Assembly (NCBI GenBank): GCA_033439295.1
Contig: JAVTLE010000014.1
Location: 744,001-808,000 of the forward strand
Reading direction: 5' to 3'
From: Deuterostichococcus epilithicus
Taxonomy: Eukaryota; Chlorophyta; Trebouxiophyceae; Prasiolales; Stichococcaceae
DNA: 64,000 nucleotides
The position numbers and the translations under genes were made by a program. A model generated the notes under the pieces. It had not been told where the DNA came from, ran no database searches, and worked only from the letters and a program-made list of their open reading frames with translations. The stretch's first letter is position 1. The number at the start of each line of letters is the position of its first letter. Below, piece after piece: positions 6,573-63,600 of the stretch.

Positions 6573-9500
6573 ATGGAGCCCGCAGCAGCAGCGGCGCCCC
6601 CCTCAGGGCCGTTAGAAGGCGATTCGGTGCCGGAACCAAGTGCCGCACACTTCTGGCGCATGCCGGCCAACGTGACAGTCAGGCTGGTGGCCAATGCTTC
6701 AGACCTGGCGTCTGCTGAGGAGGAGCTCCTGGCGGACTCGGACGCCTGCGGCATCGATGCAGAGTGGGCCCCGGGCGCCGCAGTTCCCTCGGCGGCGTTG
6801 CTGCAGCTGGCGCTGCGCTCGGCGGCTACTGGCGAGTGCACCGCGCTCGTGCTGGTGAGTGCGATAGGCTGGCTGTCTAGCTGATGATTGCAGCCTGCTG
6901 CCGTGTTCAAGTACTGGCCCCGATTGGGCCGGCAGATGCATGCTGGAGCAAGCATGGCGCCAGGCCCTTGCAAGTTCACGAGCCCACGCTGATGATGCCG
7001 TGCTCATTCGCAGCAACTCTTTCCGCCTTGGAGAAAAATAAAGTGCAGAACCGCACGCCATCCTCCTTGTCTCGGCGCACAGGACCTGCTGCGGCTGCCG
7101 CCCGAGGCGGCGGCGGCCTTCGTGCGGCGCGTCCTGACGGACGACGCCATCCTCAAACTGGGCTTTGCGCTGCCCGGCGACCTGTGGGCGCTCGCGGCGC
7201 GGCTGGGCCTGGGAGCCGTCAGGGACGTGCGGCCGGCAGTGGATGTGCGGCCACTGCAAGCGGCGCTCAGCCAGCGCGGGCCGCTGCCGAGGGTGAGCGT
7301 CTCGACTGTCGGTTCTGGATCCCTGTGGCTCTACCTTCGAACCACAGCGGCGTCTTGCTGCGCATTGAAGTGAAGTGACTGAAGTGAATGAAGTATGCTC
7401 GCTCGAATGGGGTGCTGCAGCTCATCAGTGCGTACTGCTGCAGTTGTCCACACCGCAAAGCTCAGTCTAACAGGTACCCAACCACTTGCGTGCACTGCCC
7501 AGCTCGCCAGATGCACCTCAAAGCGATGATGCGCTGCATCGGTGCCACGCAGTGCAGAATCTTGACCGTTTGGGCCTGGTGGACTGCCACCAGACGAGAC
7601 GGCTTTCTCAAGCCAAAAATGCACTTTGCCGAGCTCTCCAGCCGCACCTGATGGCTGTAATGTGCCAGTGATCGGCCTACATTGTCTACCTGTGTAGGCG
7701 CGGCTGCCGGGGCTGTCGGGTCTGGTGGACATGCATCTCGGGCGGCCCCTGGACAAGGCGCTGCAATGCTGTGCGTGGGAGGCGCGGCCTCTGTCGGACG
7801 CCCAGCTGGACTATGCTGCGGCCGACGCCGTGTGCCTGCTGCATCTCGTTGACGCCATGGTGGGATGTGGGAAGTCATTGTGGCGCTGAATTGGTCCGAA
7901 CCTTTGCTTGGTGAACAGCTCCAGCAATTGCTGGAACCTTGATTTTCAGTAATTTGCTTGCTTCGATGCACGCCCTGTTATCAAGCCTGAATACAAGCAC
8001 TTCAACACTGCATTCTAGTACGTGGCATTACCATCACCCTACTTCGCTGCGATGTTGCTTTGCCTGCAGGCTGTGGCCGCGCCGCCGTCGCAGCATCCGC
8101 TCAACCGCAGCACACAGGCCAGCAGGCCCGGCGGCGGCGGCAGGGGCCGAGGCACGGCCGCGCGGCCGGGCATGGGCCGCTCTGCGCCCTTCGGCAGCGC
8201 CGCGCATTTTGGCGGCTCCGTCGCTGTCACAGAGGCTGCAGCATCGGCCGCTGCCTCTGGTGCAGTCACAGAGCCGCGCGGTCCCGATGATCCGGCGGAG
8301 ACAGGCCCTGGCAAGTTTAGCAGGCGCCCTAGCAGCAGCAGCAGCAACAGCAGCGGCAGCAGCAGCGACTGCAGCAATGGCAGCGCCAGTGCCAATGATG
8401 GCAGCCTGGCGGTGCAGCGCCGGAGGGCTACGAATGCTGTGGCGGAGCACTGGGGCGAGTCCTGGACGCTGAGCCATGTCAGGGGCAGGAAACGGGTGAG
8501 TTGCAAGCAGCGGGACTTCCGTCTTGACCTTCCCTCTTCGTGACACCAGACATCCATCGTTGCACACATGGTTGCGGTTATATACTAGCAACACAGGGTC
8601 TCTGGTGCTGCAGTGGCACTCTCGTGATATGGCAGTGGGGAGACGCGCCCTGACGGTGGTGTGTTGGTGGTTGAGTGACCCTCATCTGCCTTCCTTGGCC
8701 CTGCGCGCAGGTGCACGGCCAACTGACGAGCAGGCTTCCAGATCCCATGGTGTCGCGAAGGAGCATCGACGACGCTGCAGGTGTGGCAGCCTGCCTGCTC
8801 CTGTCCCGCTCTCGTCGCTCTTGCGGACAAAGGTCTGCACCGTATGTGGTACATGCATCTGCCTGTCAGCAGCAGATCAAGCTGCTGCGACTTGCTGCAC
8901 CCGCTCTGTGCCAGCAAGCCCAGCTGGTCACGGTCGGAAGGTTGCTGAGGGAGAGGTGCACTGGCATAGGGCACCCAGCGAGGCTGCCATGGAGCCAGCC
9001 GCAGCAGGCGCGTTTCGTCTGCGACGTCATGGCCGGTGCGACGTCAAGGCTTGCTGTGTCAGATGCACCACATAAACTTATCTTGCTGCCCCCAGCCAGA
9101 ACGATTGTTTCTGCATCCTTGATCTCCTTGATCTCCTTCCTGCACAATTCACAGAGGGCTTGGCACGGCAGCTGCGGCTGTGTGGGCTGGACGCCGCATC
9201 AGTGCCGGCGGATCCCGACAAAGAGCCCCGCCACCGCATCTACAGGTGCGCTCATGCACGCAGGACATGAATTCGTTTCCAGCTCGGAACATCACACCAT
9301 GCGGACTGTGCCCTCGAGCCTTGCAGCCTGCAGGGCTCAAGAGTCAGCTGCCAGCCCTGATGCCTTCCACGATTGCGGGTGCAGGGCGCTCGTGGAGTGC
9401 CCCGCCGAGGAGGGGCGGGTTGTGTGGTCATCTCGGAGCATGCTGAAACATTTCTTCAGGCTTCAACATGGGCACTTCCAACCGGACGCCTTCGAAACCC

Positions 9501-10344
9501 AGCCTCGCGCACCTGCAGGGCACTGGTGGAGTGCGCAGCGGAGGAGGGGCGGGTGGTGCTCACCTCGGACCGCGCCTTCATTGCCGGGCGCTACAGCGAG
9601 GCCGCCTACTTCGTGCGCGGCGCCGACAAGAAGGCGCAGCTGCAGGAGGCACGCCGGAAGCACATTCTGTGTGCTCAGGGTCTAGCCGGCCCTGAGATGG
9701 TACCCTGATCCGCAGCAGCCTTGCTGAAGGCGCTGGCGAAAATGCGCGGCTACAGGAGGCACACGCCCTGCCCAAGGGGGTTGCAGTGTTGCTGCAGCGG
9801 GATTGTGGGCAGCCTGCCAGCCTAGTGGCATGGCAGCAGGAGGCGGGGCATGCAATTCTTGACTCGAGAGGCGGATTGGCGGCGCAGGTGCTGGCGGCCT
9901 TTTCGATCGACACCTCGGCGCTGGGGCTGCTGTCACGTTGCGCCAAGTGCAATGGCGAGTTCGAGCTCAGGTAACTACCCCCTCTGTCGTCCCTGCATCG
10001 TCTCCAGCGGGCTGAACAGATGAGCACGCATGGCTCTTGATGGTTGGGTAGCTAAGGCACAGCATCTGTGGACGTCCTGATCCCTGGTGCAGCTGGGCTC
10101 CTCAATAGCCCTTCAAGCTGCTGTCCTGCTCGTCGAGGTCCAACACTGTGCTGCCACATTCTGCCGCAGGCCGCTCACAGCTGCGGAGCTGCCGGAGGGC
10201 GCCAACATTCCAGTGGGGGTGCGGAACAGTCACGAGCACTTCTGGCGGTGCGGGCGCTGCGGCCAGATGTACTGGCAAGGCGCGCAGTATGACAACGCCG
10301 TTGGACGCCTGACACGGGACCTGGAGCGGCTTTCGGCCCGCTGA
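6573..10344 (+). CDS. Mut-7/EXD3-like 3'-5' exonuclease with Mut7-C domain
   Basis: A DEDD-type RNA exonuclease fused to a Mut7-C RNase domain and zinc ribbon, as in the nibbler/EXD3/mut-7 family that trims 3' ends of small RNAs. Exons: 6573-6854, 7083-7292, 7698-7859, 8070-8496, a poorly resolved stretch around 8711-9020, 9155-9245, 9519-9679, 9871-9970 and 10170-10344. The catalytic motifs are IDAEW (D-x-E), the aspartate in GFALPGDLWAL, and LDYAAADAV. The exon at 8070 is a Gly/Ser/Ala-rich linker. The Mut7-C part begins FVCDVMAEGLARQLRLCGLD and carries LTSDRAFIAGR. The zinc ribbon uses CAKC and CGRC. Homology suggests a role in small-RNA maturation. The intron before 9519 holds an imperfect copy of the start of that exon. 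Confidence 0.88.
9379..9424 (+). repeat. Exon echo upstream of the Mut7-C exon
   Basis: This 46-base stretch matches 9513-9558 at 39 of 46 positions by hand count. The match spans the acceptor and the first codons (RALVECPAEEGRVV in the copy, RALVECAAEEGRVV in the real exon). Weaker similarity continues on both sides. The copy loses the LTSD motif, reading WSSR instead, so it is not an equivalent catalytic exon. Confidence 0.75.
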
Positions 10345-10840: not shown

Positions 10841-13800
10841 ATGCGCAGCCAGCTGCTGCCCTTGCCAAGCTCCTATGCAGATGGCAACACCAGGCTGAGA
10901 GTCCGGCAGAAGCTGATTGCACGTCTCAGAAGCAGGGATTGGCGCTGCACAGCCGCAGCACAGTCCCATGCCTCAGCAGATGTCATCGTGGTCGGCGGCG
11001 GCGCGGCGGGCCTTACGGCAGCATACTTTGCCGCAAAGCAAGGGGCTCAGGTCCGAAACTGCGTCCTCTGAATGCTTGCCATGCGTGCGGATGAAAGTAC
11101 ATCCATTCTTGGCTGCCAGTTTCAGGCTTCGAAAGACACGTCACCGCCCGGTGCCGGCACAGAAAGCACAACCCCAGATGACAACAGTCACACGTGATAG
11201 GGCGCGGCAAGGCGCGACGATTGTGTGCAGGTGACCATCCTGGAGAAGCAGCAGGAGACCGGCAGGAAGATACTGATCAGCGGCGGCACCCGCTGGTGAG
11301 TCTGGGCCTCTTGAAAGCACATGGCCGTGCGCTCGAGGCACCCTTCAGAACAGCTGGGCCTGCCGTGCCTGCTGACCGCACGCTTATTGGCGTTGTAGTG
11401 GGCTGACATCTCGTTCTGCTGCGGTGGGCTGCAGCAATGTGCTGCCGCAGAACGCGGATGCCGCTCGCGACTTCTTCACAGAGTCCAGCGCTGGCGCGCT
11501 GCGCGGCATGCTGGCCTCCTGGCCCGTCGACGACTGCAGAGCCTGGTGAGCGAGAACATCACCTGTGGAAACAAGGGTAGCTAATGGGCTGTGATGCACA
11601 TCACATGCGCCTGCATCACCAAAAGTCAGTGAACGATACGAGCATGCATATGATGCAGCTGCCCATGGGCTGCCCGCTATGAACAAATAACATCTACAGC
11701 AATGAGTCTGGTGGCAGCGCAGGCTGGAGAACGACATTGGGCTGCAGCTCGCCATGGAGGAGACCACCCGGAAGTGGTTTCCCGCCAGCAACAGCTCCCG
11801 GGAGGTGCGGCCTCTGCTGCCGTGCACAGTGCTGCAGGGCCATGTGCACATCTGCTGAAGACTGAGATCGCTGCCCAGCTGCGTTCGCAGCCATCGCGGT
11901 CGACTCCGACGCACAGCTCATGCAAACCAGGCGCCAGTACGCTAGACGAGCCCTGCATTCCTATGCACCAAGGTTCAGAGTATTGCCTACTCGAGGTCAC
12001 GTGTGACCTCCTGATGCCCCAGGTGCGCGACCGGCTGCTCGCAGCGTGCACGGCGGTGGGCGTGACGGTGCGCTACGGCCAGGGCTTGGCAGGCCTGGAG
12101 GCCGAGGAGGGCGGCGGCGGCTGGCGCTGCAGGACGCAGGAAGGCGGCGCCTTTGCAGCCCGGCGCGTGGTGCGCGGCCCCGAAGCGCCGGACCTCGACG
12201 GCACAGCTCAGACCCTGCACCTCAAGTCTTGGATATGCAGCGCTGGGCTTTCTGAAGGGCTCCAGCGCCCTTCCTCTGATGCTCTGAAGCGCGCGCACCA
12301 CAAACCTTGCGGCCTCGCCTCGTGCTCAGTCTCACTTGGGGATTTTTCTCACCTCCTCCCCAAAAGAATGTCTGCCAGGCCCCCAACAGGTCACCTCGAC
12401 CCATTTGAGCTGTGTCGGCTTCACTGCAGGTGATGGCGACAGGCGGCAAGTCGTACCCCAAGCTCGGAACCGATGGCACAGGGTGGGCGCTGCTGGCACG
12501 GCTGGGGCACAGCCTCAAGGCCCCCTACCCGGCGCTGACGCCGCTCAAGGGATCCCACCCGGGCGGCGCCCAGCTGGCAGGTGCGGCGGCAGAAAACATG
12601 CATTGCAGCGTCACAAGACACAGTCCCGAGTCGTGGCGCGGGAGTGAGGCAGGAGCAGCCCGAACCTGGCGCGCCGTGACAGCGTCGCGCCATGTTCAGC
12701 AGCTGCTGACACTGCGGGGCACAGCGGCAGACGCACAGCGAGAGATGCCCCCGACCCCTCCTTCGCAATCCACCTGTCCTGGCCGTGTCCACGCAGGCCT
12801 CACGGTGCACAGCGTGCAGCTGGCGGCCAGGAAGGCGACGGGGAAAGGCAAGCCTGCGGTAGCGCAGCGCGGCAGCCTGCTGTTCAGCCACCGCGGCGTC
12901 ACAGGGCCGGCGGTGCTCGACCTGTCGCACCACGCCGTCATGGCGCTGGAGCGCGGCACGCCGCCGCCGGGTGGGGCCTCCACCATTGCGTCTCTAAACC
13001 GGTTTACCTCTGCACTTTGGCGCTTTTGCGCTTTCAGGCTGTCAGACCTCGCGGTCTTTGCGCTGGAGCGCGGCATGCCGGTGCCGAATAGGAATGACTT
13101 CGAGCAAGCTCTGGCTGGTTTCTACACATGGACTGCTCTTTTCAGGGTGTGGCATGTTCCCTTTGTGGCAGCTGGGCCTCTGTTCCTGCGGCATGAGGCT
13201 TGCGGCAGCCGCATTGGCATGTCGCTCGCACCCATTTCGCGTTTGCCCGAAAAGATTCTGCGCGCGCTTAAATTGAGTCACGTCCCGCCCTGCGCAGCTC
13301 TGACGGTCAACTGGACAGGCGAGGAGGTGGACGCCTGGTCCGCGACGCTGGCGGAGGCTGGCGGCCAGGCGGTGGGCAGCGTCCTGCACCGCAGGGGCCT
13401 GCCCACCCGGCTCGCAGAGGTGAGACGTTGTGCGTTTCCCTAAAGGCCTGCCCGGTGACCAGCGAACTTGCGACCAGCGCCTGGGCAACTCGTCAGCCGA
13501 GCCCCTTCGCTCTTCCCGTCCACCAAAGGTGCACAGCCGGAACTGACCTGGTCCAGGTTCCAGTTTGACGTTGGTCGTGCTGCAACACAGGCGCTGTGCG
13601 CATCGGCAGGCGTTGACGGAAAGGCCACCAGGGCGGCGGACCTCAAGAAGGGTCAGCGGCAGGCGCTTTTGACGGCGCTCACTGCGCTCCCGGTGGATAT
13701 AGCAGGGCACGAAGGCTACCCAAAGGTAACAACAGGCAGCAAAACCCTCTGCTCATCGACGGAGAAGTGCCTTGCTGCTCGTGTTGCACCCAGGCGAGGT

Positions 13801-14507: not shown

Positions 14508-15107
14508 TGCTCTTTATGGCGCCTGTACTAACTGTACTTACTGGACCCAGGCCATGCGCTGGTTGCTCATAATGGCAGCCTGTACAAACCTGTACATGCT
14601 GGACCCAGATCATGCGCTAGTCGGAAGCCGTCGTCTGCGCTGCGGCAAAGGCATTCCGGAGGGTTAGCAGCTGATCCTTGAGACCCTGCACACGCACAAT
14701 CTCCATTGACAGGCGAGCAAGTGGCAATTGCAGGACTGTTTTTGCACTGGTCGCTCATGCCCTCGCTGGCTCGTGAACTTCATGGTGACATTACAGCATG
14801 AGACTCTAGCCACCGGAGTCCTGCTAGCCTTGCTGATGAGTTGAAGCTGACCTTACCGCCTTGCCCTCGACTATAGACAACACTTGCAGAGTTCAAGTAT
14901 ATAAGCATCCATACTGCAGCCTGTTCCCGGATTCATGCTGGCGTACAAGTCGCAGATCATCATGACCCGACCTCCACGAAGTGTGTCAAGACTCACCCAG
15001 CAAATGCTCTTGGTCCACTGTGGTGACCCCCGTCAACGATTCTTGATCACTACTTTACCGGAATGACTGTCATTGACGTATAAACTGGCCCTTCGAAGGC
15101 TACCAGC
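14508..15107. other. Intergenic region with a short direct repeat
   Basis: No gene was recognised. Two related segments of about 40 bases at 14523-14562 and 14581-14622 share TGTAC-, GGACCCAG- and CATGCGCT-like blocks, forming an imperfect direct repeat just after the flavoprotein stop. The rest should contain the promoter of the next gene. Confidence 0.4.
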
Positions 15108-18100: not shown

Positions 18101-21100
18101 TGTCTGCTCTCCTGGTGCTGTGTCCCCTCCGTGCTGTGTCCCCTGATCTCCGTCTCCGCACCCCTTTGCAGGAAGCGGAGATGCCGGACCGCATTTCAAG
18201 CGAGGACACTGACGCAGCGCCCGGGCTGGAAGTGCCGCTGCGCGGCGTCAAGCCCGTCACCTGCCTCCACGTGGACCTGCACAACAGCCTGCTGTGGACG
18301 GGTGTGCATCTGCTGAGGACTGCTGTGCTTGATGCGCCTAGCAGCATCAATGACTGCATTTGGCGGATTGCGCTCTCGTCCACATCTGGGCACGGCAGAC
18401 CAAGTCACGATCAACACAAGCACAGACCGCTGTCTGACCCACAGAGTTCGAGGTTTAAGCCAAACGACCGGTGCTGTGTGTGAAGCAGCGGCGAGGAGTA
18501 TTCTCGCAAGTCTTGCACAAACCTGGCTGTCTGGACCAGCGCGCAGTGACGCCTCTCACCCCCCAGCATTGAGTGCCTGGCGCGTAGGTCACCACGACGG
18601 CTGGGTGTGCGGGTACACGCTGGGCGACATGCCGGGCGCGGCAGTGGAGCGGCGCTACTGCTTTGCCGCCTTCCGCGGCGGCTCTGTCACCGCAATGTGC
18701 GCCACCGCGTGGGGCGACCTGTGGGTGGCCAACTCCCGCGGCAGCATCCGGTGCGCGGCGAAACCGCAGCTTTCTTCCAGCTCTACAGCTGCACAGGACT
18801 CCCACCCTTGCCAGGCGGCCAGCGCGGGCCGGCTGAGCGTGCAGAGCAGGCGCTGCTGCGTTTGCCGAGGCAGAGTCGGGTTCAACCATGTGCTGACCCC
18901 ATCAGAAGCACGATGCGCTAGCCCACACTGCATTTGGCTCGCCAGCCACCCTGGGCCGGCCACAGTAGTGGCATGGCACCCGGCGCTGCTCGACTGCCCA
19001 GACAAACAACGGCTGCTGAGTGGTGGGCCGGTGCCCACGAAGCATCTGGTTAACAGGTGGCCGCGCGCCTGGATGTGCACATCAGACGGGGCTCAGCCGG
19101 GGTATCAGTGGTCAACATGGCCTGGAAACCCCTGGTCAAATACCGCTATCTGGTCTAGTCGACCAATCCTCCTCGTGTCTCACCCTGTCCCCTCTCTCGC
19201 TCCCTTGCTCGCCAGCCACAAGGGCTCATGCTGGAGACAGAGATTTAGTGATACCAGTGCCCACAGGGTGCTCCTCAAACTCGGTTTGTTTCCGCGCCGA
19301 CTCGTTTCCCTGCCGGTGCAGCATCTGGCCGGCTAGCCACGAGGGGCCTGCCATGTCCGAGGTGGAGGCCCGGGAGCTGCGCCGCGGCTCCAGCGGCAAC
19401 CGGCCCCACGGCGGCCACATCTCCTTCCTCGCACTGCCGCTGCCAGGCCAGGTGGGCAATCTGCTCCAGTTGCAGCGCTGAGCTTCTGCCTGAATTTCCA
19501 TGTGCACTGTTTGATCCTGCGGCGAAGTTCAGAATGGCTTGATGCACACACCTGAGGGAAGAGGGTCTCGCTCAGAACATTCAGACATCCAGGACGGGTT
19601 GCTCCTGAGCAGGCAAAGCGCTGCAATTTGTTCATGCAGGACTTCCGTCCAAAAGCGCCTTTCCCAGCGCCTCCAATGACATGAGTAGCCGAATAGTCTT
19701 GCCCGAGTCTGTTCTCGGGTGGCTTGAAATCTCATGGGTGGCCTGGTCTGCACTAGCAAGGCGATCCGCTCGAGACTGCTCAAATAGCAGCGCTCCATCT
19801 CGGCAATGTCCCAGGGCATGTGTTGGCCTCGAATCCCTCCAATCAGTGACGCGTCAAAATTCTGCTCCTGCAGAGGTCTTCTGAAGTCGCAGTTACAACG
19901 TTCCAGTGGCACGGCGCTTTCTTCCTGTGTCGTTGGGCTTGCAGACGGACGAAGTAGGTGTGTACGGCTTGGACATGGTTTTGCCACTGGCGCGCAGGTG
20001 GTGTGGAGCTGCAGCGGCAAGACGCTGTGCGTGTGGTCTGCTGACACGGGCGCCTGGCTCGGCAAGATTGGCGGCGACCGGGAGCTCGAGGAACCGCTGC
20101 CGCCGGCCTTCGGGGAGTCGCCTGCGACTGCCGCCGAGGCGCTGTCCAGCTTCACCGGCGAGCACGGCGCACACCTGCAGATCAACAGCGCCAAGGTGCC
20201 GCCCCTGCGCATCGGGCCTGCACACGCTCCCGACTGCTCGTGTACCCGTCCTGCTGTGTGACAATCGGGGACTGTAGTGTGCTGCCTCCGCCCCTGGTCG
20301 GCATCCTGTTTCTATGTGTGCACAGGCAATACCCCAGAGCTCCGTGCCACCACAGCGGCACCCGCTCCTCATCAGAATGGCACCCGCTCCTCATCACAGT
20401 GAGCCCCGCTCCTCACCACAGTGAGTCCGCTCCTCCTCAACGACCTCAGGGCCTAGACATGGACGCCGTGGGCGGCGTGGCGGTGCCGGGAGCCTGGCTG
20501 TCGCGGGACGAGGAGATCCGGCGGCAGCGCGCCTGGGCTGAGCAGACCGACACCCGCCTCGCCGGCGTGGCGGAGCAGATGACCATCGCCCGCGACAACG
20601 TGGCCCACACGGCAGGCGCGCGCGCCTGTGGGGGCCGCACCCGCATGCCCGCGCCGCCGATGGGCCTGCGTCCTCCTGCGGCTGCAGCCCTGGCGGGCGC
20701 TCTTTCTTGCTGCCTGCCCGCTGCCCCCGCCCCGCCTGCACGCGCGGCGGGGCAGACAGCGCAGACAGACGCCACAGTGGACTGAGCTCGTTGCTTTCTT
20801 CCTCTTTTCTCAAGTTTGTCGTCCGCGTTCGCCGCAGTCAAGGCAGGCGAGCTGCTCAAGAAGCTAAGCTGAACTCGCTTTCAAAACTCTCTTTAATCTT
20901 CCTTGCCTATGATATGCAGTCAAGGCGGGCAAGCTGCTGAAGAAGCTGGGCACGCGCATCGCGGCGCGCATCGAGGGGCAGGACGCCGGCGGCGGCTCCT
21001 TCTCCGAGCAGCAGCGCCCCACCTCGGCGGAGCTGCCCGCCGCCGCCAACTGGTCGGCGCACAGCGTCGGCGGCGGGTCGGAGCCCGAGGCCAGCCCCCA

Positions 21101-24100
21101 CCACGGCGACATCAAGGTCTGGATGCGCTCTTGTATACACAGCGCACGTGTATCGGCTTGCCATCATGTCATTCTATGGTGGCTGAGGCACGATGCTGCA
21201 GCAAGCGCCCCCAGAGACCCTGCTACCAGCATGATGACTCCGGATCACGGCGCAGCAGCCTGCATCACCACAGCCAATTATTCTGGCGTCACCACAGCCA
21301 CTAAACCTGTCTGCTCAACCTGTGGCAACTGCATTGGGAGGGCAGTTGCCACAGGCATTTGGAAGGCAGCTGCCAAAGGATCAGCAAACAGGAGTAGCAA
21401 TAAAATACTTGAACAAGATGCTCGTTGCAACGAACGTAAAACACACATGGATCTGATGTTGGAAGTCCTGTGGCAGGTGCTGGTAGCGGGGCCGGACGGC
21501 TATGTGTGGGCGGGGCACAAGGGCGGCCTGCTGGAGCGCTACACCTCGGGCGGCTGCGTGCAATGGTACAAGGTGCGTGCGCCGACAGCTCCGGCAGCAG
21601 GACATCTCGAGCGTGTTCTGCTGCAAGCAAGCATGTATATATACCCGTTGTTCTTCCGGCGCTGCTGGGTTGCTGTGCGCGCTTTCGGCGCGCCAGCGCT
21701 TGCAGCACTCGCAGCGCATCAGGACAAGCCGACTGCAGCTGCTCGTGCGTCCACAGCATGGCCCCGGGCGAGTCCACAAGGCCTGGAACCGTGATTCGAA
21801 ACCCCTGTTGGTGGCGGCGCGCAGGAGATGGGGTCCGGCATCCGCTGCGCAGCGGCAGTCGGCGACCGCTTGTGGCTGGGCCTCCGCTGCGGCTCGCTGC
21901 GCGTGTTCAGCACCGGGCCCAAGCCCGCGCTGCTGGCCCACTGGGAGGCGCACGACACCGCGGTCGTGTCGGTCACCCAGGCGGGGCGCCGCGTGTTCAG
22001 CCTGGCGTCCGACGGCGGCGTGCGCGGCTGGGCCGCCGGCGTGCCCGGCCCCGCCGACGACGACTGCAGGTGCCACCGCGGCCGGGCCGCAGCCCGATCC
22101 TGTTATGTCATGCTTGGTACTCTGCACCAGGCTACAGGCCAGGGACGTGTGCCTTCGCCTGCACACCTGCATGGGGGCCGCCACGCCTGCTCCTCCACTA
22201 TCCTGTTGATGGCTCCGTTGCACGTGAGGAGCATGCCCGTAATGCACTGCCTGCTGCGCGCAGGGCGGAGCTGGAAGCGGAGATGGACCAGCTTGTCAGC
22301 CGGCGCTGCTACACGTGCGTCGCGATGACGTGGAACGTGAACGAGCAGCGCCCGGAGGACTCCGCGGCATTCACCGCGCTGCGCAACGCCGCGGTAGACG
22401 CGCACGTCGCGGCCGTGGGGCTGCAGGAGATTGAGATGGGCGGCGGCAGCGTCGCCATCGCGGCCGCCAAGGACGCCATTGCGCGCGGCATGCTGGTGCA
22501 GCCTCGTTCTGCCTTGTTCCCCATCGTCAGGGGATACTCAGTCCGACGGTTGACTTTAGTATCGCCTGCCATCGTCTTCGAAGATGTGGGGCAGGCACAT
22601 GGCTGCTCTGCAGCCTGCTGCAGGACTCCGGCGTCGAGCGGCTGCGCGCCGTACGCTGCCGCCGCTGCCTGTGCTGGGACGTGCCCTGAAACTCTGGCTG
22701 CACTACTGCACCCCCAATGCTGTGTTGCACGCATGGCAGGGAGTCCCGAAACCAACAGTCTTTCTGCTGGCAATTGTCCGGCGGAGCTGCTCTCCAGTCA
22801 TTGAGCGCATGTTTGGAATACTCATAGCAAACCATCCTGGGGTCAGCTTCACACCTGCTTGGAGCCAGGCGTGTGCAGTAGACCATGTAACATGTGTAAC
22901 TGTGGCCACAGGAGAAGGGCAATGCGAATGCGCACTGGTGGGGACGGCGCTGCCTGCGTGCGCTGCACGGCGCCGGCGATGCTGCCTGGACGCAGGTCGG
23001 CCTGCGCCAGCTGTCGGGGATGCTGGTCCTCGTTTTTGCACGCCAGGTGCGGCACGGGTCTGTCTGAAGGCACGGTGATACTTGTTGCCAGAATCAATTC
23101 CAATTATCTCGTCCGAACCTCTATTGGTGTGCGTGTGGCAGTGGCTGGGCATGCCTGTGCAAGCTGCTGGCATGCTGCTCCTCTGCTGCACCAGCGGTGG
23201 GTGCAGTGGGGTCTAGTCTGTTGGCTCGTCGGCGGCGGCCTGGCAGCCGTCTGCCCTGTAAGACGCTCATTTCATGACATTTGCACACCCTATTCGACCG
23301 CAGGAGCTGGGCGAGGTGGTGGGCGAGGTGGCGTCCGCCAGCGTTGCCACGGGGGTGCTGGGCGTGGGCGGCAACAAGGGCGCTGTGGCGCTCGGCTTCA
23401 CGCTACACCGCCGCCGCGTCGCCTTCATCAACAGCCACTTCGCCGCGCACCAGGCACGGAGGACGTCCCTCATTTTGTCTGTGTTCCGACCGGTTCCAGG
23501 CTTGCAGTGAAGTGCTCGTCGGCACGACAGCGACGCCAGAGTGCAGCCTTCCACGCTGCAGGTGCTCCTGCCGCAGAAATCCAGGCCGCTCCGTCGTGGT
23601 CTGCCCTGATGCTCAGCTTTACGAAAGCTTTCAGGGCCAGCACAGGTGGGGTCTGGGGGATGAGCCATCGTTGCTGCAGTTGTGCTCTCTGATCCGTACT
23701 GGCCTCACCGTGCGAAGGGCCGGCCGAGGCCTGATGATGCGCGGCAGCCAAGGGTATCTCGGAGCGGCACCGTCACCAAAATCAGCAGCCACATCCACCG
23801 TGATCGCCAACAGGCGTGCTTTGCTGGCTTCTCTATAGCCACAAACGGTCCGCAGCAGCCCTAAGGACACCACAGCCGTTGGGTGACACAGTCCGTGTGG
23901 CAGTGGCAGAAACGACAACCATTCCTCACCGGCTTGGAACTTGGGTAGGTCGTGCCGCCTGCACACAGGCCCAGCAGCGTCGCCGTCACTGACAGTGCAC
24001 AGGTGCCGCGGCTGTCGCGGCTGTGGCCCACGGTACCAGCCTGGAGGTCTAGCCTGGCAACGGGTTCAGGAAGCAACCTTTCCTTGCTGGGCTCTGTCAC

Positions 24101-27100
24101 TCCTTCGCTGAGTCAGTGTTGGACAGTCCTGGAGGAATCCTCTGGCTGCACTCATCGACAGGGTGCGGTGGAGGCGCGCAACGCCAACTACGCCCAGATT
24201 GCGGCGCAGCTGGCTTTTAAGCGTGCTGGCTGGCTGGACGAGGACAGCCACGCGGCCGGCGGCGGCGGCGGCGCGCTGAAGGCGGGTCCGTCTTCGAAGC
24301 GGCTGCAGGCGGGGGCGGCGGCTGCCGCACATGAGGCGGGCGAGGGCAGTGAGTTCGAGGACCTGGCAGAAGAAGAGGAGGGCCAGGTGAGGCGTTTCGT
24401 TCCGATGCAGCCTGCAGTCGTTCATCGTGTGGCACCAAGGTGCAGTTTCAGTTCGGGCCGACGGGCATGGCCAGAAGGTGGACCGCCGCTCTTTGCGGCC
24501 AAGGCGCCGAGCTGAGGCACGCGACGCAGCGAATGCGAGCCTCGCAGTCCACAGGCTCTGGGGGCGCCGGGAGTCGCTGCTGCTGCTGGGCAGCGCACGA
24601 GGCGCCACAACCACCTTTGCTTCTGTGTGTGCTGACGGGGCAGCGTCAGTTCGGTTGAGCGGCTCAACTGAGGTTGTCCCGCAGCCCTGCCGAGCCTTCA
24701 TACACATCCCGTAGGGGGAGGGCATGTGCGCAACAGAGCTGCTGGTTTGGCTGGGCGCCTTTGATGACCGTACATCACATCAAGCCATGTCAGATCACGA
24801 TGCGTGATACCATGCAACAGCATGTCGTTGCAAGGGAATTGGCTGCGCGCGGCGGAACCGCTGGTGCGGAACAGGGATGGACGTCCTCAAGCAGTGCTCG
24901 ACGACAATCCTCCACGAACTGCAGGGGGAGGGCATGCGCGCAGCGGAGCTGCTGGTGTGGATGGGCGACTTCAATTACCGCATCGTCGGCGAGCGCAATG
25001 CCGTCGTCTCCTCCATCCGCCGCTTCCTGCTGCAGGACAAGGCCTCCGCGCTGCAGGACCTGCTCGCCCAGGTGGCTCTTCAATCTGTTCTGTTGCTTTT
25101 GCTTTCCCGTGTTTTCTGTGCAGCTCTCTGTGCGCGACTGGTGAACCAAGCTCATGGCGCTTGAACCAGCTCACCCAGGCGCCCCCTGTCTCCCGCCCAT
25201 TCTAGGTCGCCGCACTTTCGTGCATTTTCCAATCGACTGCTGACGCAGCACTGAGACTGCGCCCCTCAGCTATCGCGTCCCCGCCACGTCGTCTGAACAA
25301 ATGGTCCGTCGTAACCATGAACAACAGAAGCGGCAGTGAACCTGTATCACACCGAAGGGGCCTCCCTGTTGGACATGCACCCCTAGTGAACATCCGGCCC
25401 TGCCCAGTTCTGGGGTCAAGCCACCTGAGATCGCATGACGTTGCATGACATCGCCCAAGGGTGGAAGCTCGACCAGGATGCAACAAACATGCCACAGGGC
25501 CAGCTGCTGTGGGGGATGGCGGCAGGGGTTGTGATCCACTACCTACCTACCTCGTCACTGCCTTCCTGCAAACCTCTCGAGTGCCCAGGACGGGACCAGC
25601 TGCGATGGGGGATGCCGGCCGAGCGCTTGTCCCGCTGCACGAGGCAGTCTCGGCATTCGCATCCCGTCACAAAACTCTCAGCTGTCACACACAGGACCAG
25701 CTGCGGCAAGAGTCGGCGGCCGGGCACATGTCCCGCTGCATGCACGAGGCAACCTCGTCATTTGATTGTGTTCTGCCACAAACCTCTCAGCCGCCGCACA
25801 CAGGACCAGCTGCAGCGGGAGGTGGCGGCGGGGCGCGTGTTCCGCTACCTCCACGAGGCCCCCCTCCGCTTCGCGCCCACCTACAAGTTCGACAAGGGGG
25901 AGGTCAGCCCGCACGCCTACGACAGCAGCGAGAAGCAGCGGGTGCCGGCCTGGTGCGACCGCGTGCTCTTCCGCGGCTCGGAGCTCACCCGCGACTCCTC
26001 CCAGGTGCGCAGAGGATTGATTTACTCAAGGGCATCCTATTGAAAGGCTTTGCCAAGGGCGTCTCCCGGGGTTTCCCCCTGACCCTGCATGCAGCGACTC
26101 CTGCTCCTGCGAACGCTGTGCTCATCGTGGGCTGGGGATTCTGCCGTCAACCATCTGTCAGGTGGCGTCAGGCGCCCCCCTGCTCCCGCACAGGCCCGCA
26201 GCAGCTCAGCGCCATGCATGTGGTGGGGCCATGCAAGCACCTGACCGTCTCTGCCGCTCCGCATTGCTGCAGGCCCTGTCGCGGCGCAGCACGGAGGACC
26301 CTGACGCCCCCGAGCCGGCGCTGGCGGCGGAGGAGATCCGCGTCAAGTGCACCCACTACTGGTCAGTGCCGCACGCCGTGGAGTCAGACCACAAGCCGGT
26401 GCTGGCGAAGCTGGCCATCAGCATGCCCGTCACCGACCAGGCGCGCCGCCATTCCACTCGGAGGTTTTGGGGGCCGCGTCTGACACGCTTGCTTCTGCAG
26501 GGCGAGGAGGATTTGCGCTGCTGAACAGGCGCCTGACAGTGCTGCCGGCGCAGCCGCCATGTTAGCCGTCCATCACCGGGGACTTCCCAGGCAGCCAGGG
26601 TGCTGTCGAGCTGACCCTGCATGCCCAATGTGCCGGGGGGACTGCGCCGTGGCACGCGCCAAAGCTCCGCACACCCAGGTGGGGTGCCGGAATCGTGCTG
26701 ATGGCGCAGTTCCGCGGTCCCCGTGTCCCCCCCGGCCGCCCCCAAACGATCACCAGGGCCTTGCAGCGCCCGCCACCTCATGCGTACCAACCCCGCCCAC
26801 CCCTGCTGCACCCAGGCCCGCAAGCGCGCCCGGGTATCGGCCATCCTGGCGGCAGCGGACGCGCGGGCCGCCGAGGCGGAGGGGCGCCCCGATGTGCACG
26901 TGGTCCCGGGCGCCGTGGAAGTGGAAGCAGGAAGCCCCCCGGGCGAGCTGGTGCACCTGCACAACCGCGGCAGCGCGCCGGCGGCGTTCTGCCTGGGCCC
27001 TGCCTCGGTGCGTTGCTTCCCCCGCCGCCCTCGCAGCGCCCTGCAGACTCGGAGCCGCCGAGTAACGAGTTGGCATGTTGTGGATCTTCACTATGATCCG

Positions 27101-29386: not shown

Positions 29387-29399
29387 GGTCTGTATAAGC

Positions 29400-34241: not shown

Positions 34242-34294
<53 letters not shown>

Positions 34295-39655: not shown

Positions 39656-39702
<47 letters not shown>

Positions 39703-48316: not shown

Positions 48317-48460
48317 TAGTGTGGTGCAAAATTATTCGCCCCTGTCTGACAGCTGTTTGAGAACGAAATTCGGTGTTGCTTGTGTGCCATGTCCATGCGC
48401 CTGAGCGGGCAGCACGTGGATCAAAATACTTTGACCGAGCTCTCGTAAAAGGGGCACTGA

Positions 48461-49053: not shown

Positions 49054-49230
49054 GGGCGAATAATTTTGCACCGCACTTTATCTTGCAGAGCAGCAGCAGA
49101 CCTCTGACCAAGGCTGGTCTGCTGAATGTGTGCCTGACACAGGGCCGCCCTGCACGGTGTCGGCAACAGGCAGGCCGCCTTGCACACCTCTGATCTGCTA
49201 CCTTCCGCATTGTCCCCCCAACTTGCATTA

Positions 49231-49316
49231 TAACAGATGCATCAGCGTCTCCCTGAACATGCAAATGCTGTTGCGCTGCATCAGCGTCTCCCGGAACATG
49301 CAGATGCTGTTGCGCT
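49231..49316. repeat. Two-copy 39-base tandem repeat
   Basis: Two adjacent units beginning TGCATCAGCGTCTCCC differ at only a few positions. The array lies between the transposon and the last recognisable exon of paralogue C. Confidence 0.8.
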
Positions 49317-54380: not shown

Positions 54381-54694
54381 CCGGCGCCGAATCTACAATT
54401 CCACATTGACCTTCCGCATGCGAGCGGCCATGCCGCGCTCCGGCACTCCCTGCGCCCAGAGGACAATTTCAGCATAGCACGCATACAGCAAGTATAGAAA
54501 ACCGGGCACAGCGCGCTGTGAGGGCTGCCAACACGCTGTGGACCCTTCTTCGCACCTGCAGCCGCTGCTCTGGGACTGCGTGCTTGGCGCACGCATGCCA
54601 GAGCAACATCAGCCTGTGTCCATCCTCGGCAAGCAACAAGATGCAGCCTGCACGCCACAGGGGCGAGACAAAGCACCTGGGTTGCAAGTCTGAG

Positions 54695-57600: not shown

Positions 57601-60600
57601 GACAGGTCCAGCTCCGCAGACTGAGCCGGTGCCGGCCCTGCCGAAAGTACACGGCAAGGGCATCAGTACCCCATACCACCCGTCAAATCCATGAGCAAGC
57701 GCCAGGCGACATCAGTCGCAACACGCATCCAGATCGCTGGTGCCTCCAACTGATAAGCCTTGACCCGCGCATGCTCCAAGTCTGCTCGGGTCCACCTGTG
57801 GGCGTGTTGTCGGCAGTCCGGGGCTCGGGACCCCGGTGGCTCTTGTCGGCAGAACGGCCCTCGATGTGATTCCGCCGTTCCCTGGAGCTGGAGCCGCTGG
57901 CTGAGCCAGACACGGTGCCCTGGCCGTCCCTGGCGCCACGCTGAGACGGCGGCGGCGTGGCGGCAGCGCGGCTGCGGGGAGCGGCAGCTTCCGGCTGCCG
58001 CGCGGCGGGCCGGGCCGGAGGTGCGGCTGCGGCTGCTGCGGCAGGCGGCGCCCCTGCCTGCGCTGCAGCGGGCGCCGGCGCCAGGCCCTGCTGTGCAGGA
58101 GCTTCGGGCGGGAGCAGCCGCTGCGGCCAGGAGGCGGCCGACGCCTGCCCCGCCGCTGCGCCTGCTGCCGTGCTCGCTGCCGCCTGCGCAAAGACGGTCC
58201 CCGTGCATGCCGGGAGGTCGCCCTCGGCCAGAGATGCTTCCACCGTCAGCAGGCCCAGCAGCCTGCCGCGCTGCCGCGGCAGTGCCGCCAGCTGCGCCGC
58301 CAAACCTTCCCGCTGGCCCTGCAGGGTTGCCAACGACATTGTTTCCTTGGCGTTTCAGGGGGTAGAGCAGGCAAGCTCGGGCTCTGGCTGGTCGCAAAAT
58401 CCTGACCATGGCGGTAGCACATAACTTGCAGGAGATCCACCAACGCTTTGACAACCAAGTTCTGCCGAGGGTGCTGAGCGTATGAGCAGACAGGGGATGG
58501 CTCCGTCAGGCCAGTTGTGCAGCACGTGACATAGTGTGCCGGCGCTGCACCTGCGGCAGCGCCACCTGCGCCCGGACCGCCAGCGGCGCGTCGGGCGGCA
58601 GCAGCAGCAGCCGCAGGTGGCGGGGGATGTCGTCGATGTCAACCCGGAATCGCACGGACGCCGCCAGCTGCGCCCTGTTCTTCCTGTGCAGCGTACCGCA
58701 GGGCGGCCGTCAGAAGATGCCACGGTGAAAGTTGGGGGCAGTGGCGGCCCTGCCCAGCGCCGCCCCGCAGCCCACCAGATCGACCCGAGGGGGATGGTAC
58801 CGTGGTAGCCACCCAAGCATGGAGCCGGCACTGCAGCTGATGCTTGACAAGCAGCCACCCGCACCCCCTTTGCTTTCGATGCACGACTGTGAGAAAACAG
58901 CAACAACGACCATGGTGCATGTTCAGCACATCCTTCCAGCAGCGCCGCCTAGCACATGATGCTTTCCTGTGCATGGCTGGCACCTGAGGCGGCTGGCGAG
59001 GCGCGTCCAGGGCTGCAGCAGTGGGAAGGGCGGCTTGGCTTCGGCGGGCGTCACGGCGGCGGCGCCCGCCCACACGCTGATGTGGCCGTCCCAGCCCTGC
59101 CGCACCGCCTCCCATGCACCTGCGCGCAGTCGAGGCGCTGTGAGTCCGATTGGGAAAACCATCTGAAGGCCCGCCGCCGAGGGCCGCACGATCCAACGGA
59201 GGGTCGTGACAAGGGGCAGCTACACGGGGAGGGTGCAGGGCATGCGATCATCTACCCTCCCCTTCCGTTCTTACACCACTTTGTACCACAAACTCACGAC
59301 TTTTCACAGAATCTGGCGAATCAAACCTCACCGGGGGCGCTGACGTCAACAAGGCCAGACACCAACAGCTGCTCCCGTGCCGCCAGCAGCTCGCTGCCCT
59401 GGTACACTTCCATGGCCAGCCCCACGCCCGCCTTGCACGCCTCGTCAGCGTCCAGTCCAGCGCCTGCAGCCAGGGTGAAAGGACAAAAGCACCTCAACAT
59501 CACGATTGCAGAAGTTTCATGGTTCCACACGCTTGCTGGCCAGCCGGCGCCGGCACTGAACGTTCCCGGGATCGTCCAGCCCCGTGCCTGCAGCATAGCA
59601 AGGACTTCGATGCGAAAGGCAAGGGGCGCTGGTGCGCGCTGGCATGGCCAGCGCCGCGCCGGCGTCGCCAGCCTCATCATCGTCTGGCCTCTTGCCTGCG
59701 GTGGCTGATGCCAGTCGCCATCGACTGTGGCACCAAGCGGCGCAGCATCCATCCACAACAAGGCAGCGCCCGCCCACGCCGGCACCATGTGCGTGCCCAG
59801 CAGTGGTGCAGGTTTACGTTGAGAGACGGGAGAGGCCATGACTAGGAAGCCGAGGAATGACTGAACCGCTCGGAGGGGCGTAAGCAACTTGCAGCAGCCG
59901 TAGCGACTGGTCATAGCCGTTTTATCGCAGCAAGCATGTGCCGGTGACACACCCGCTTGCTGCACCCAGCCGGGCCCCGCGCGCGACTCTGCGCCAGTGC
60001 CCCACCGCCACGCCTCGGCAATGCAGCTCTCCCAGCCCTTGCCCGTCTCCCACTGCAGCGAGCGCTCAGCGGCGCCCTCGTCGCCACCGCGCAACGCCGA
60101 CGCCGGCCACACCTGCGCAACAAGGGACACCGCGGTCAGAAGCCGGCCTTGATGACGGAGCCTGATAGGGGAAGACGACGCTGTGGTAGTTGTCCGCAAG
60201 CAGGAGTCGCTGCTGGCGCCAGGCGGCGTGGCTAGAGCTCGACTATTCAGGCTCGCAGGCTCACTTTTACACCACCGTTCTTATCTACGAGCTTGAGCAC
60301 ATCTGGAAAGGGTGTAGCTCCGTGCATGCCACATTCCCTGGCGGTCCGCGCAAAACATCCAACTTCCAGGGCTGATCTTGTCTGCGTTGCGTGAGCTGGC
60401 TGGAAAGCTCTGGCAGGCTTCGTTCAATGAGAGCAAGCACAGGGCATGCGAAAGGCGCACCACACACGCTTCCTCCTCCTCGTCTTGGTCGACGACCACA
60501 GCACCCATCCCCGCCAGGTAACCCGCTTCAAACTCCGCCTGAGCGTCACACGCCGGCGGCGGCGCTGCCATCGGCTCGGCTGCAAGCCCACCAGCATGCA

Positions 60601-63600
60601 CGTTCAGCTGCGGGCTGCAGCTCAGGCAAGCCCAGAGATTGCAATGCGCTGCTCACAGCGCAGACAGGATGCAGCGGGCGCTGACTGTGTCAAGAAGCCT
60701 CTGGCTTGCAGGGCTGCAGAGGAATGCACAGGCCATGCGCTGTTGGCACTCGGTGCCAGAGCGGTCGTCGAGGTTGAAACACGCCTGAAGACCTCTGAGG
60801 GCTGGCAGTGTATTGCACGATGGCAGGCCGAGTCAGTGAGTGGCCTCTCGTGGAGTGCATCCGGAGGGCTTCTCATTCTGGTGGTAGTTGACAGAGATGC
60901 AGTGCACGAAACGCACCCCCAGGGCAAGTCAGGTCGGGCAAGGCAGGCAGTGGCCCATCGTACGGTGGCTCCTGCGGTGCGGCCGGCAGCATTCCTGCAG
61001 CTGCAGTGGCAGGCAAAGGTGCTGCGGCCGCCACCGGGGGCTGCGGCACGTGCTGCACCGCGCTTGGCACAGCTGTGCACGTGGATGCGGCCGTGTCCTT
61101 CCCTGCAGGCGCAGGCGCAGGCGCCGCAGCTGTCTGCGCCGGCTGCATCGCCACGCCGGTGGTGGGGACGCCGGCGGCAATGGACAGAGCCTGCGGCGAG
61201 GCGACAAAGTCTGCGGGCTGCGCGTGCGGCGCCCGGGCAGCTGTATCAGCGGCTGGAGCCTGGGCAGCGGCTGGCGTCTCCGCGGGTGCAGGCAGTGCCT
61301 CTGGAGCCGCACGCTCGGAAGCGCCGGCGTGGGGCCCGATGACGCTGGCGCTGTCGCCCTCGCTGCTGGCCGCCGCCGCCTGCCGCCGCTCGCCCGCCGG
61401 GTGCTGCGGGGACGCCGCCGGNGCCGCCAACCGCGGGCGGCTGCGCTTGCGGTCGGGGGCTTCGGCCGAGCGGCTACGCCGCTCATTACGCCGNGCCGCG
61501 GGGCTGCCAGGCTGCTCCGCTGGCCGCCGGCCGCCGCCGCGGCGCTTGCTGNTGCGGCTGTGGGTCGGCCGCTCCGGCCTCGGNCTGCGCTGCCCGGGTG
61601 CCGGGCTGCGCACCCGAGGTACCGGGCTGCGCTGCTTCTGGGCGCGGAAGCGTCCGCCGGGGCTGCTGTCGCGCTGTGAGCGGGCCGCCGAAGGCTCTGC
61701 ATGATCACGGGTGCGGCTCTTGGAGTGGCGCTGCAGCGGCGCTGGGCCCCTGTCCTTTGCGTCGGGCCTGCGCTCGGCGTGCTTTCTTTCAGCTGCCCGC
61801 TGGCTGTCGATGGGCGACTTGCGAAGGTTGGAGCTGCGCTTGTGGCCGCCCGTCGTGTGGCTGCCGCCATGCGCCCGGCTGCGCTCGCGGCTGCGTCTGC
61901 GGCTGCGGCTACGCTCCCGGCTGTGGCCCCGTGTGCCGCAGTCTGCAGCGCGGCTGCGGCTGCGCACATGGCGATCGGCAGTGCGGCTGCGCCTGCGCTT
62001 GCGACGATCAGGATCGCGGCTGCGGCTGCGCTCGCCACGGTCGGCATCGCGGCTAAGGCCAAGAGCAGGGCTGCGGCGCTGCTTCGGGCTGCCGCTGCGA
62101 CAGCGGCTGCCGTGCTGGCTGCCGTGGTGCTTGTCTCGCTCTCTGCTGGCCCGGCCGCAGCTGGGCGAGACGTGCCGTCGGGAGCGCTTGGGCGACGGCG
62201 AGCGGCTGTCGCCGTGGCGCAGCCCCTTCGACTGCTCCTTCGGCAGACTGCGCCTGCCATTGCAAATGGATGCAGTGTTCAAACACAGGCTGCTTGCTGG
62301 AGACGTGAATAACACCCTCGATGCTGGTGCCTCAATAGGAGTGAGGTGGGCCAGCTTGGCGAAGGCAGCGCTCCCGGCGTGTCTGCTCTCAGCCAACCAT
62401 GCCTACAGGCCCGTCAGGTTGCTGCTGCCGAAGCATCATTGTGCGAGACAGGGTTTCCTCAGGCTGGCCGGCCTGGCTCGCAGCACCGCCACCTGGGACA
62501 TGCAGCTTCCCGCAACTCGCGGCAGCCATGTGCGGCCACAGTCGAGGGGCAGGCAAAGGCGGGAGGACATCAAGCCAGCACTGCAATCCCACAAGGCTTG
62601 ATCGGAGGGTGCTGCGAGCAAAGAAACGCGACCCACTCGGGCCTGGGCGTGGTGGGGCCCTCCACCGCCTCCAGCGCCGCGGGGTGCGCGTAGCTGTGTC
62701 TGATGCACCAGCGCAGCGTCTCCAGCTTGGCCGGCCGCTCCGCCTGTGCTGCCCTGGGGCCCCCCCACGCCACAGAACATGTGAGACGGCGCGAACGTGA
62801 CTGGTTGGGAGGCGCGGGAAACTCTGGGCAGCGCAGTGCCCTCCAGCTCGGTTGACGCCTCCGGCCGCGCGGCCCAGCGGGGCAACAACAACTTTGTGAG
62901 GCGTGCACCACCAGCAGAGCCATCAGAACAAGAATCTGTTGAGGGGCACCAGCGGTGCCCTGTAGATGTGCACCTGCAAAACATCTCCGACCTGCCTGCC
63001 TGGCGCACCTCTGCAGGCCAGCATGTCGCGCACACTGCGCACGCGCATGCGCTGCACTCGACAGCTGCAACCCTGAGCGTGTCGAAAGGCAACCTCGATC
63101 AGGACCCATCTCACGAAAGTTTGAAGAACCCCAAGGCCGCCTCACCCGAGCCACGCCCGTGCCATGCGCAGCTTGGTCGCCACGTGGGCGCAGTGCCGCC
63201 GCAGCAGCTGCGGCGCGCCGCTGGCGCCGCCCTTGGCGGCCAGCGTCGCCAGCTGTTCGGGGTCCACGACCGGCGCCTCCGCCACGCCGGTGTGCGGCGG
63301 TCCTAGCCGCATGGCGGACTGCAGGGGGGGCAATGCCGCACGATTGGTCTGGGGCTCACAGGACCATCCAGCGGTGGCCGCAGCACGGCAGGCGCCTCTG
63401 CCACGCACACAAGCAGTGGGCGCAGCTGCATCGCAGCGGGCTGCCGGGGGCGCCGGGCGAGACTGCGGAAAATCCGCAGCTGTGGGCGCGAGATGCCATG
63501 TCAGCCCTTGTTGTTTTGGTCATGCGACTGGGTAGCCCGTGTCGGGCCGCAGTGCTGACACCATCAGAAAGCTGGCAGCAGGCGGGTGTGCAGCTCCGCT

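What the first reader, a model, noticed from the sequence alone, without database searches (positions are those of the whole stretch)
9379..63431. Exon echoes: introns repeatedly hold decayed tandem copies of a neighbouring exon edge
In at least four different genes (exonuclease, flavoprotein, 5-phosphatase, paralogue B) an intron carries one to three partial copies of an adjacent exon end together with its splice site, typically about 80-230 bases away. Most copies are of the acceptor plus the first 30-70 coding bases and lie just upstream of the real exon. Divergence ranges from about 10% to 35%, so these are neither assembly duplicates nor recent polymorphism. Repetition in unrelated genes suggests a recurring process, such as local tandem duplication at splice junctions. 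That could be a source of intron growth, cryptic acceptors or alternative exons. I know of no named feature class that describes this. Seen: the copies. Inferred: a common mechanism.
Basis: partly seen in the sequence, partly recalled or inferred. Interest (0 to 1): 0.88.

Follow-up and report, generated by a model that had tools for sequence, protein, structure and literature searches.

The report
Exon-edge tandem copies inside introns
In this stretch of what is probably a green-alga genome, about one intron in ten still carries worn-down copies of the neighbouring exon's edge, best explained as short DNA stretches duplicated across a splice site and then hidden by splicing, a little-documented way for introns to grow.

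Summary
A self-comparison of the window, low-complexity coding masked, finds 8 direct matches of 34 bits or more at lag 25-400 (six loci) against 1 inverted, and almost none at longer lags. In 103 introns tested, acceptor-side copies score 120 or more in 7 (0.20 expected from other exons, 0 inverted) and donor-side copies in 3 (0.40 expected, 0 inverted). Hidden middle copies turn the 210 and 230-base echoes into two steps each (120+91, 106+124). Best explanation: repeated tandem duplication of an 80-150 bp segment crossing a splice junction; splicing at the outermost site keeps the mRNA unchanged, so the extra unit becomes intron and decays. Differences are spread evenly over codon positions, and 5 of 7 copies tested would break the frame if used. 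Copy-bearing introns are longer (median 309 against 228). The elementary event is known from one potato gene (PMC4974935). New here are its recurrence, decay and absorption without a new intron. Three loci lack the whole-period homology that a simulation expected. No genome, relative or RNA data were available, so generality and mechanism are inferred.

The parts
9246..9518 (+). Exonuclease (exo1 + Mut7-C) intron; echo of acceptor and exon head at 9380-9443, source 9514-9575, lag 134
   Evidence: 52/64, 0 of 300 shuffles as good; spliced protein matches Mut7-C in one stretch over the join
12971..13297 (+). HI0933-like flavoprotein intron; donor-side echo at 13039-13092 of exon tail 12922-12975, lag 117
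   Evidence: 42/54. The gene finder ended this intron at 13045; I moved it by hand on the HI0933 match. Searches used 13296, one base short
20628..20919 (+). 5-phosphatase gene intron; acceptor-side echo 20834-20880, source 20916-20959, lag 82
   Evidence: 32 nt, 91%; 37/47
23047..23303 (+). 5-phosphatase gene intron; donor-spanning source 23001-23074, copy 23154-23228, lag 153
   Evidence: score 143, p_cross 0.0003; 55/78
24387..24924 (+). 5-phosphatase intron with two acceptor-side echoes, 24689-24776 (lag 211) and 24829-24890 (lag 91); source 24900-24984. Acceptor ambiguous: 24894 (gene finder) or 24924 (by hand)
   Evidence: genuine exon reads WMGDFNYR, echo WLGAFDDR
25072..25803 (+). 5-phosphatase intron with three tandem echoes 25493-25546, 25569-25660, 25662-25754; source 25771-25863; steps 96, 101, 109
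   Evidence: the type II inositol 5-phosphatase of PDB entry 3mtc aligns without a break across this intron
27497..27738 (+). Predicted intron, gene unidentified; donor-spanning source 27445-27514, copy 27566-27635, lag 121
   Evidence: 126, p_cross 0.0019; 50/73
59464..59952 (-). Minus-strand predicted intron with two acceptor-side echoes, 59708-59626 (lag 230) and 59594-59529 (lag 124); source 59478-59396
62749..63008 (-). Minus-strand predicted intron; acceptor-side source 62759-62709, copy 62880-62829, lag 120
   Evidence: 117, p_cross 0.0055; 37/52; weakest of the ten, kept partly because of its lag
63319..63738 (-). Minus-strand predicted intron ('paralogue B'); acceptor-side echo 63453-63368, source 63331-63249, lag 122
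   Evidence: (57/86)
27630..27706 (.). Tandem duplication inside a predicted intron (38 bp x 2, 94%), an example away from a junction

Best explanation
The echoes are remnants of short tandem duplications (units about 80-150 bp) whose ends fell one in an intron and one in the adjoining exon. Each new unit carries a splice-site module (intron tail with branch-point region and acceptor plus 40-70 exon bases, or the donor mirror image). Using the outermost site still gives the old mRNA, so the duplication is nearly neutral, the inner copy becomes intron, and it decays by substitutions and indels, sometimes after further steps that make arrays of up to four units. Shown: the copies, their excess over controls, stepped arrays with middle copies, absence of the copies from the protein match in the three conserved genes, and weak or lost splice sites in 6 of 10 scored copies. 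Inferred: that they arose by duplication at DNA breaks, that splicing uses only the outer sites, neutrality, and that introns grew this way.
For: Short lag and direct orientation (8 against 1 inverted); own-exon against other-exon control in 103 introns, acceptor 7 against 0.20, donor 3 against 0.40, no inverted hit at that score; 80-nt window scan without gene models, 29 windows at 130 or more against 0.0 far-expected and 2 inverted, with 14 of its 24 clusters at the ten loci; arrays with steps 96/101/109, 120/91, 106/124; homology reaching 13-33 nt into the intron in 4 of the 6 acceptor loci scanned and 18-28 nt past the donor at 23.0 and 27.4 kb; whole-period homology in the 25.5 kb array (p 0.004 and 0 of 500) and at 59 kb (p 0.018); spliced proteins that skip the copies match Exo_endo_phos2 (E 2e-59), Mut7-C and HI0933 in one stretch each, and 3mtc aligns across the 25.1-25.8 kb intron; even codon-position differences, 22/116, 21/115, 22/112; copied acceptors weak or dead in 6 of 10, while the six genuine ones lie at or above the 33rd percentile of 121 predicted acceptors; copy-bearing introns longer, 309 against 228, p 0.013, and about 210 after subtracting the units; plain short tandem duplications elsewhere.
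Against: Spacer homology was not detected at the exonuclease (p 0.08), 20.8 kb (0.28), 24.7 kb (0.31) and flavoprotein loci (0.88 before, 0.34 after the copy), although my simulation expects it with power 0.97-1.0. The 24.7 kb result came before its middle copy was known and was not redone; the other three stand. The simulation used mild indels. The 23.0, 27.4, 62.7 and 63 kb loci were not tested this way. Third positions are not in clear excess (18 of 44), so the genuine exon seems hardly to have changed at silent sites. Unit lengths are narrow (117 +/- 20). One acceptor hit above the cut, intron 18751-19321 at lag 392, does not fit and was left out of the ten. Local inverted similarity is also raised in the window scan (8 windows against 0.5 at 120 or more). 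The other 10 of 24 clusters of that scan lie in exons, introns or unclear sequence. Longer introns also offer more room for a match. Gene models come from my own simple gene finder, without transcripts.
Confidence: 0.74

Rival explanations
1. Templated insertion: during end joining at a break in the intron, a polymerase (recalled: polymerase theta) copies a short piece of the nearby exon edge into the break, so only the edge is copied, not a whole tandem unit.
For: No detectable spacer homology at the exonuclease, 20.8 kb and flavoprotein loci where simulated tandem units would have shown it.
Against: Such insertions should come in both orientations (recalled); at 120 or more there are 10 direct and 0 inverted exon-edge hits. 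Stepped arrays with intron tail included at 24.7, 25.5 and 59 kb, and a tail-bearing single copy at 63 kb.
Confidence: 0.1
2. The copies are kept for function: alternative or poison exons, or decoy acceptors that tune splicing.
For: 4 of 10 scored copied acceptors, 9384, 20837, 25694 and 59588, lie at the 41st-85th percentile of predicted real ones, though that score separates poorly (median of predicted acceptors 7.5; 95th percentile of random AGs 7.7). In the exonuclease copy 4 of 5 differences in 36 nt are at third positions.
Against: Pooled differences are even over codon positions; a pattern with 70% third-position changes, a figure I chose for two coding copies, is rejected (p 0.0001); the conserved motif is lost in the 24.7 kb copy; of 7 copies tested, read-through is out of frame in 4 and meets a stop before the genuine exon in 3, 5 being spoiled one way or the other.
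Confidence: 0.08
3. A process aimed at splice junctions, with a characteristic unit of about 115 bp centred on the junction.
For: Nearest-copy lags 117 +/- 20 in ten loci; exon parts 56 +/- 10 nt in six acceptor loci; uniform lags rejected (KS p 9.7e-05).
Against: An exponential length spectrum with a mean of 18-26 bp plus a minimum unit fits as well (KS p 0.25-0.29), and log-uniform lags are not rejected (p 0.11). The ten loci were partly chosen by lag, so the test is partly circular. Tandem duplications occur away from junctions too.
Confidence: 0.06
4. Chance similarity of GC-rich sequence, or assembly artefact.
For: No reads were available; the window has 11 Ns.
Against: Other-exon, far and inverted controls; divergence of 9-34% looks too high for duplicated haplotypes (inference); no N at a copy.
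Confidence: 0.02

Closest known systems
Tandem genomic duplication crossing an intron-exon boundary, potato RdRp gene PGSC0003DMG402000361 (Ma, Lan and Niu 2016, PMC4974935; abstract, results section and passages read)
   Same: Same elementary event: a tandem duplication of the intron tail with acceptor plus the exon head, splice signals inherited from the parent intron; an 83-bp tandem duplication inside an intron of the same gene is also reported there.
   Different: There one young case that created a new intron and an extra exonic segment, backed by relatives and RNA-seq. Here about ten decayed cases, no new intron, the copy lying within the old intron.
Intron gain by duplication of an AGGT-holding exon segment (Rogers model, as described in PMC4974935; Drosophila cases in PMC2891723, abstract read)
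   Same: Tandem duplication interacting with splice sites.
   Different: That model duplicates exon only, so the copy should begin at the new donor (my inference); here an existing splice junction is duplicated and the copy lies inside the intron, e.g. 139 bases after the donor in the exonuclease intron.
Small tandem duplications from double-strand breaks (PMC8355091; abstract and passages read; it cites Vaughn and Bennetzen 2014 for rice, not read)
   Same: Candidate mutational source; that paper calls small tandem duplications the commonest short (<100 bp) insertions in the human genome.
   Different: Break repair was not observed here; the junction-spanning copies are too decayed to show breakpoints.
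Tandem exon duplication and mutually exclusive exons (recalled; for PMC6071210 only title and start of abstract seen in search listings)
   Same: Neighbouring copies of exon sequence.
   Different: Only 40-71 exon bases beside one splice site are seen in the copies, and 5 of 7 tested would break the frame.

Membership tests
Tandem genomic duplication crossing a splice junction | Copy includes both intron and exon side of the junction | tested here: met
   Alignments run 13-33 nt into the intron at 24.7, 25.5, 59 and 63 kb and 18-28 nt at the donors of 23.0 and 27.4 kb; only 4-5 nt at the exonuclease, 20.8 kb and flavoprotein loci
Tandem genomic duplication crossing a splice junction | Head-to-tail units with whole-period homology | tested here: inconclusive
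   Met for the 25.5 kb array (p 0.004 and 0 of 500) and 59 kb (p 0.018); not detected at exonuclease, 20.8, 24.7 kb and flavoprotein loci despite simulated power; four loci not tested
Tandem genomic duplication crossing a splice junction | Absent from relatives (dated event) | not testable with these tools
   No related genome held; one viral-contig scan found no relative
Intron gain by tandem duplication | A new intron is created | tested here: not met
   In the three conserved genes the spliced protein matches its family with the copies lying inside one predicted intron; not testable in the unidentified genes
Alternative or mutually exclusive exons | Copy keeps an open frame and a coding pattern of change | tested here: not met
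   Even codon positions over 8 copies and frame or stop defects in 5 of 7 copies tested
Alternative or mutually exclusive exons | Copy is used in transcripts | not testable with these tools
   No RNA data

The most novel reading that the evidence does not exclude
In this lineage junction-spanning duplication, perhaps aimed at splice junctions and with a unit of about 115 bp, is a main route of intron growth: it has added splice-site modules to at least a tenth of introns and leaves a standing supply of cryptic acceptors, 4 of 10 scored ones still near ordinary strength, from which new exons or introns can start.
Probability: 0.15. Interest if true: 0.78.

Novelty: new variant of a known kind. 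Interest (0 to 1): 0.52.

Why it matters
How introns lengthen without mobile elements is, to my knowledge, thinly documented. If one intron in ten carries recognisable junction-spanning duplications (4.7% of the 34,040 intron bases examined), this is a countable, datable route of intron growth and a source of cryptic splice sites, and annotated genomes can be used to test it. It also warns that gene finders may call the copies as exons: mine did at 24715-24769 and 25477-25508 under its looser setting.

Tried and rejected
Rogers-type intron origin (copy at the donor): not supported, the copies lie inside the intron. RNA pairing as the cause: not supported, copies are direct, not inverted. A first gene finder trained on itself over-split the window and was dropped; a generic algal codon table, recalled and not from a call, gave frames without stops over whole predicted genes. 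My first idea, that exon edges are visible only because the exon copy is constrained, is only partly borne out: simulated detectability differs little up to 15% decay and about 2.7-fold at 20% (0.65 against 0.24), and third positions show no clear excess. In one search three of six donor-side hits (introns 45309, 39774, 61897) are low-complexity coding; before I dropped 21 of 124 introns for low complexity, and introns under 80 or over 1500 nt before that. Seven stretches were masked by hand before and a similar list. Among the ten loci I kept 62749 (117) and left out 18751 (131, lag 392) and 44484 (116, lag 404), partly on lag. Two intron ends were set by hand. Relatives: one viral-contig scan found none; the other collections were not scanned. 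Pfam found nothing for four peptides of the minus-strand genes. In the rows listed by ten literature searches I saw no survey of decayed junction-spanning copies, but Gao and Lynch 2009 and Hellsten 2011 are not held.
Full report
What the window is. 64 kb, 63.5% GC, intron-rich nuclear DNA of a eukaryote, probably a green alga (inferred from codon usage and gene content; not tested; no genome is held). Coding runs mostly on the plus strand up to about 48 kb and on the minus strand from about 49 to 63.4 kb. Genes tied to families: histone deacetylase, exonuclease with DNA_pol_A_exo1 and Mut7-C, HI0933-like flavoprotein, 5-phosphatase with Exo_endo_phos2; below Pfam's cut-off, leucine-rich repeats and a propeller in the 5-phosphatase gene.

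Observation. blastn of the window against itself shows short-range direct copies. With low-complexity coding masked, direct matches of 34 bits or more at lag 25-400 number 8, at six loci, inverted 1; in every lag bin above 400 the direct rate per equal lag range is 0 to 0.09. A first control on introns (stricter gene model) gave 6 of 118 acceptor-side introns at score 30 or more against 0.08 expected from other exons, and 6 of 116 donor-side against 0.16, of which 3 are low-complexity; no inverted hit reached 30.

Anatomy. A more sensitive alignment shows that several echoes are parts of tandem arrays. The 24.4-24.9 kb intron has copies at lags 211 and 91; the minus-strand 59.5-59.9 kb intron at 230 and 124; the 25.1-25.8 kb intron at 109, 210 and 306. 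Single copies lie at 134 (exonuclease), 82 (20.8 kb), 122 (63 kb) and, donor-side, 117 (flavoprotein). In 103 introns outside low complexity, acceptor-side scores of 120 or more occur in 7 (0.20 expected; 0 inverted), donor-side in 3 (0.40; 0). The ten loci I describe are six of those seven, the three donor-side ones, and intron 62749-63008 (117). A window scan without gene models returns 24 clusters at 112 or more, 14 of them at the ten loci, which are all found. The other ten are repeats of period 34, 38 and 56 in predicted introns, a 39-bp repeat at 49242 where the gene model is unclear, two weak intronic ones at 57.0-57.4 kb (lags 109, 128), three weak exonic ones, and one weak one at 44.2-44.5 kb that crosses a predicted donor. 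At 120 or more the scan has 39 windows against 0.5 far-expected and 8 inverted; windows overlap, so these are not independent counts.

Which copy is the exon. Proteins spliced past the copies match Exo_endo_phos2 (profile 1-260, E 2e-59), Mut7-C and both HI0933 domains, each in one stretch. The type II inositol 5-phosphatase of PDB entry 3mtc aligns without a break across the 25.1-25.8 kb intron; at the 24.4-24.9 kb intron its alignment is in two parts. The exon at 24.9 kb reads WMGDFNYR, the copy WLGAFDDR. For the genes at 27 kb and on the minus strand no family match supports the model.

Fate of the copies. Differences in eight copies fall evenly on codon positions, 22/116, 21/115, 22/112; leaving out the two older copies of the 25.5 kb array it is 14/85, 12/85, 18/83. 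A pattern with 70% third-position changes, chosen by me to stand for two coding copies, is rejected, p 0.0001; neutral decay of the copy is compatible (p 0.34 against one third, 0.29 against one half). I tested read-through from 7 acceptor-side copies into the genuine exon: the lag is not a multiple of three in 4, a stop precedes the exon in 3, and 5 are spoiled by one or the other; two copies of the 25.5 kb array (25.59 and 25.49 kb) stay open and in frame over the stretch tested, but their acceptors score at the 0th and 1st percentile. Of 10 copied acceptors scored, 9384, 20837, 25694 and 59588 lie at the 41st to 85th percentile of 121 predicted acceptors, 59696 at the 18th, and five at 0-2; the six genuine ones lie at 33-85. 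The score separates only moderately: 5% of random AGs reach 7.7, the median of predicted acceptors being 7.5.

Intron growth. The ten copy-bearing introns have a median of 309 nt, the other 93 of 228 (one-sided p 0.013); without the recognised units the ten have 209.5. Recognised units make up 4.7% of 34,040 intron bases. Longer introns also give more room for a match, so this is support, not proof.

Mechanism. A tandem duplication that crosses an acceptor leaves two acceptors; using the last gives the old mRNA. For that the downstream unit should hold its own branch-point region and pyrimidine tract: the intron part between a copy and the next acceptor is 34-75 nt in the seven steps measured. 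Such a filter with a short-biased length spectrum fits the unit lengths (KS p 0.25-0.29), but lag was partly used to choose the loci. Break repair is a plausible source: small tandem duplications arise by fill-in and end joining at breaks in mouse and human cells (PMC8355091, abstract and passages).

Against. At the exonuclease, 20.8 kb and flavoprotein loci the rest of the period shows no significant homology where the simulation expected it; the 24.7 kb locus failed too but was tested before its middle copy was known. Either intron spacers turn over by larger indels than simulated, which the uneven steps (120/91, 106/124) suggest, or those loci are insertions of an edge alone. I cannot decide between these here. 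Gene models are mine, unsupported by transcripts.

Known or new. The elementary event is in print for one potato gene (PMC4974935). In the rows that the ten literature searches listed I saw no account of recurrent, decayed, intron-absorbed junction duplications; the library lacks key papers.

Noticed in passing
45266-45660: Array of 21/42-base units whose translation resembles the RNA polymerase II tail (recalled motif), in a large unidentified plus-strand reading frame; Pfam gave no family for 44174-46135.
   Followed up: partly
43366-43501 (+) and 58984-59119 (-); 50154-50684 (-) and 63145-63519 (-): Related exons on opposite strands (61% over 46 aa) and on the same strand (39% over 69 aa): perhaps paralogous genes; four minus-strand peptides had no Pfam match.
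   Followed up: partly
14508-14618, 27630-27706, 49238-49316, 56347-56414: Short tandem duplications (58, 38, 39 and 34 bp, two copies each). The 38- and 39-bp ones, 94-95% alike, extend only one base beyond two full copies. The gene model around 49238 is unclear.
   Followed up: partly
34234-34309 and 39656-39701: Long CAG/GCA runs, the second perfect over 15 units, in repeat-rich coding-like sequence.
   Followed up: no
48315-48341 and 49054-49080: Inverted repeat, 27 nt at 93%, 739 apart, near where the coding strand switches.
   Followed up: no
18751-19321: Acceptor-side match at lag 392 (63/97, p_cross 0.001) that does not fit the 80-150 unit pattern.
   Followed up: no
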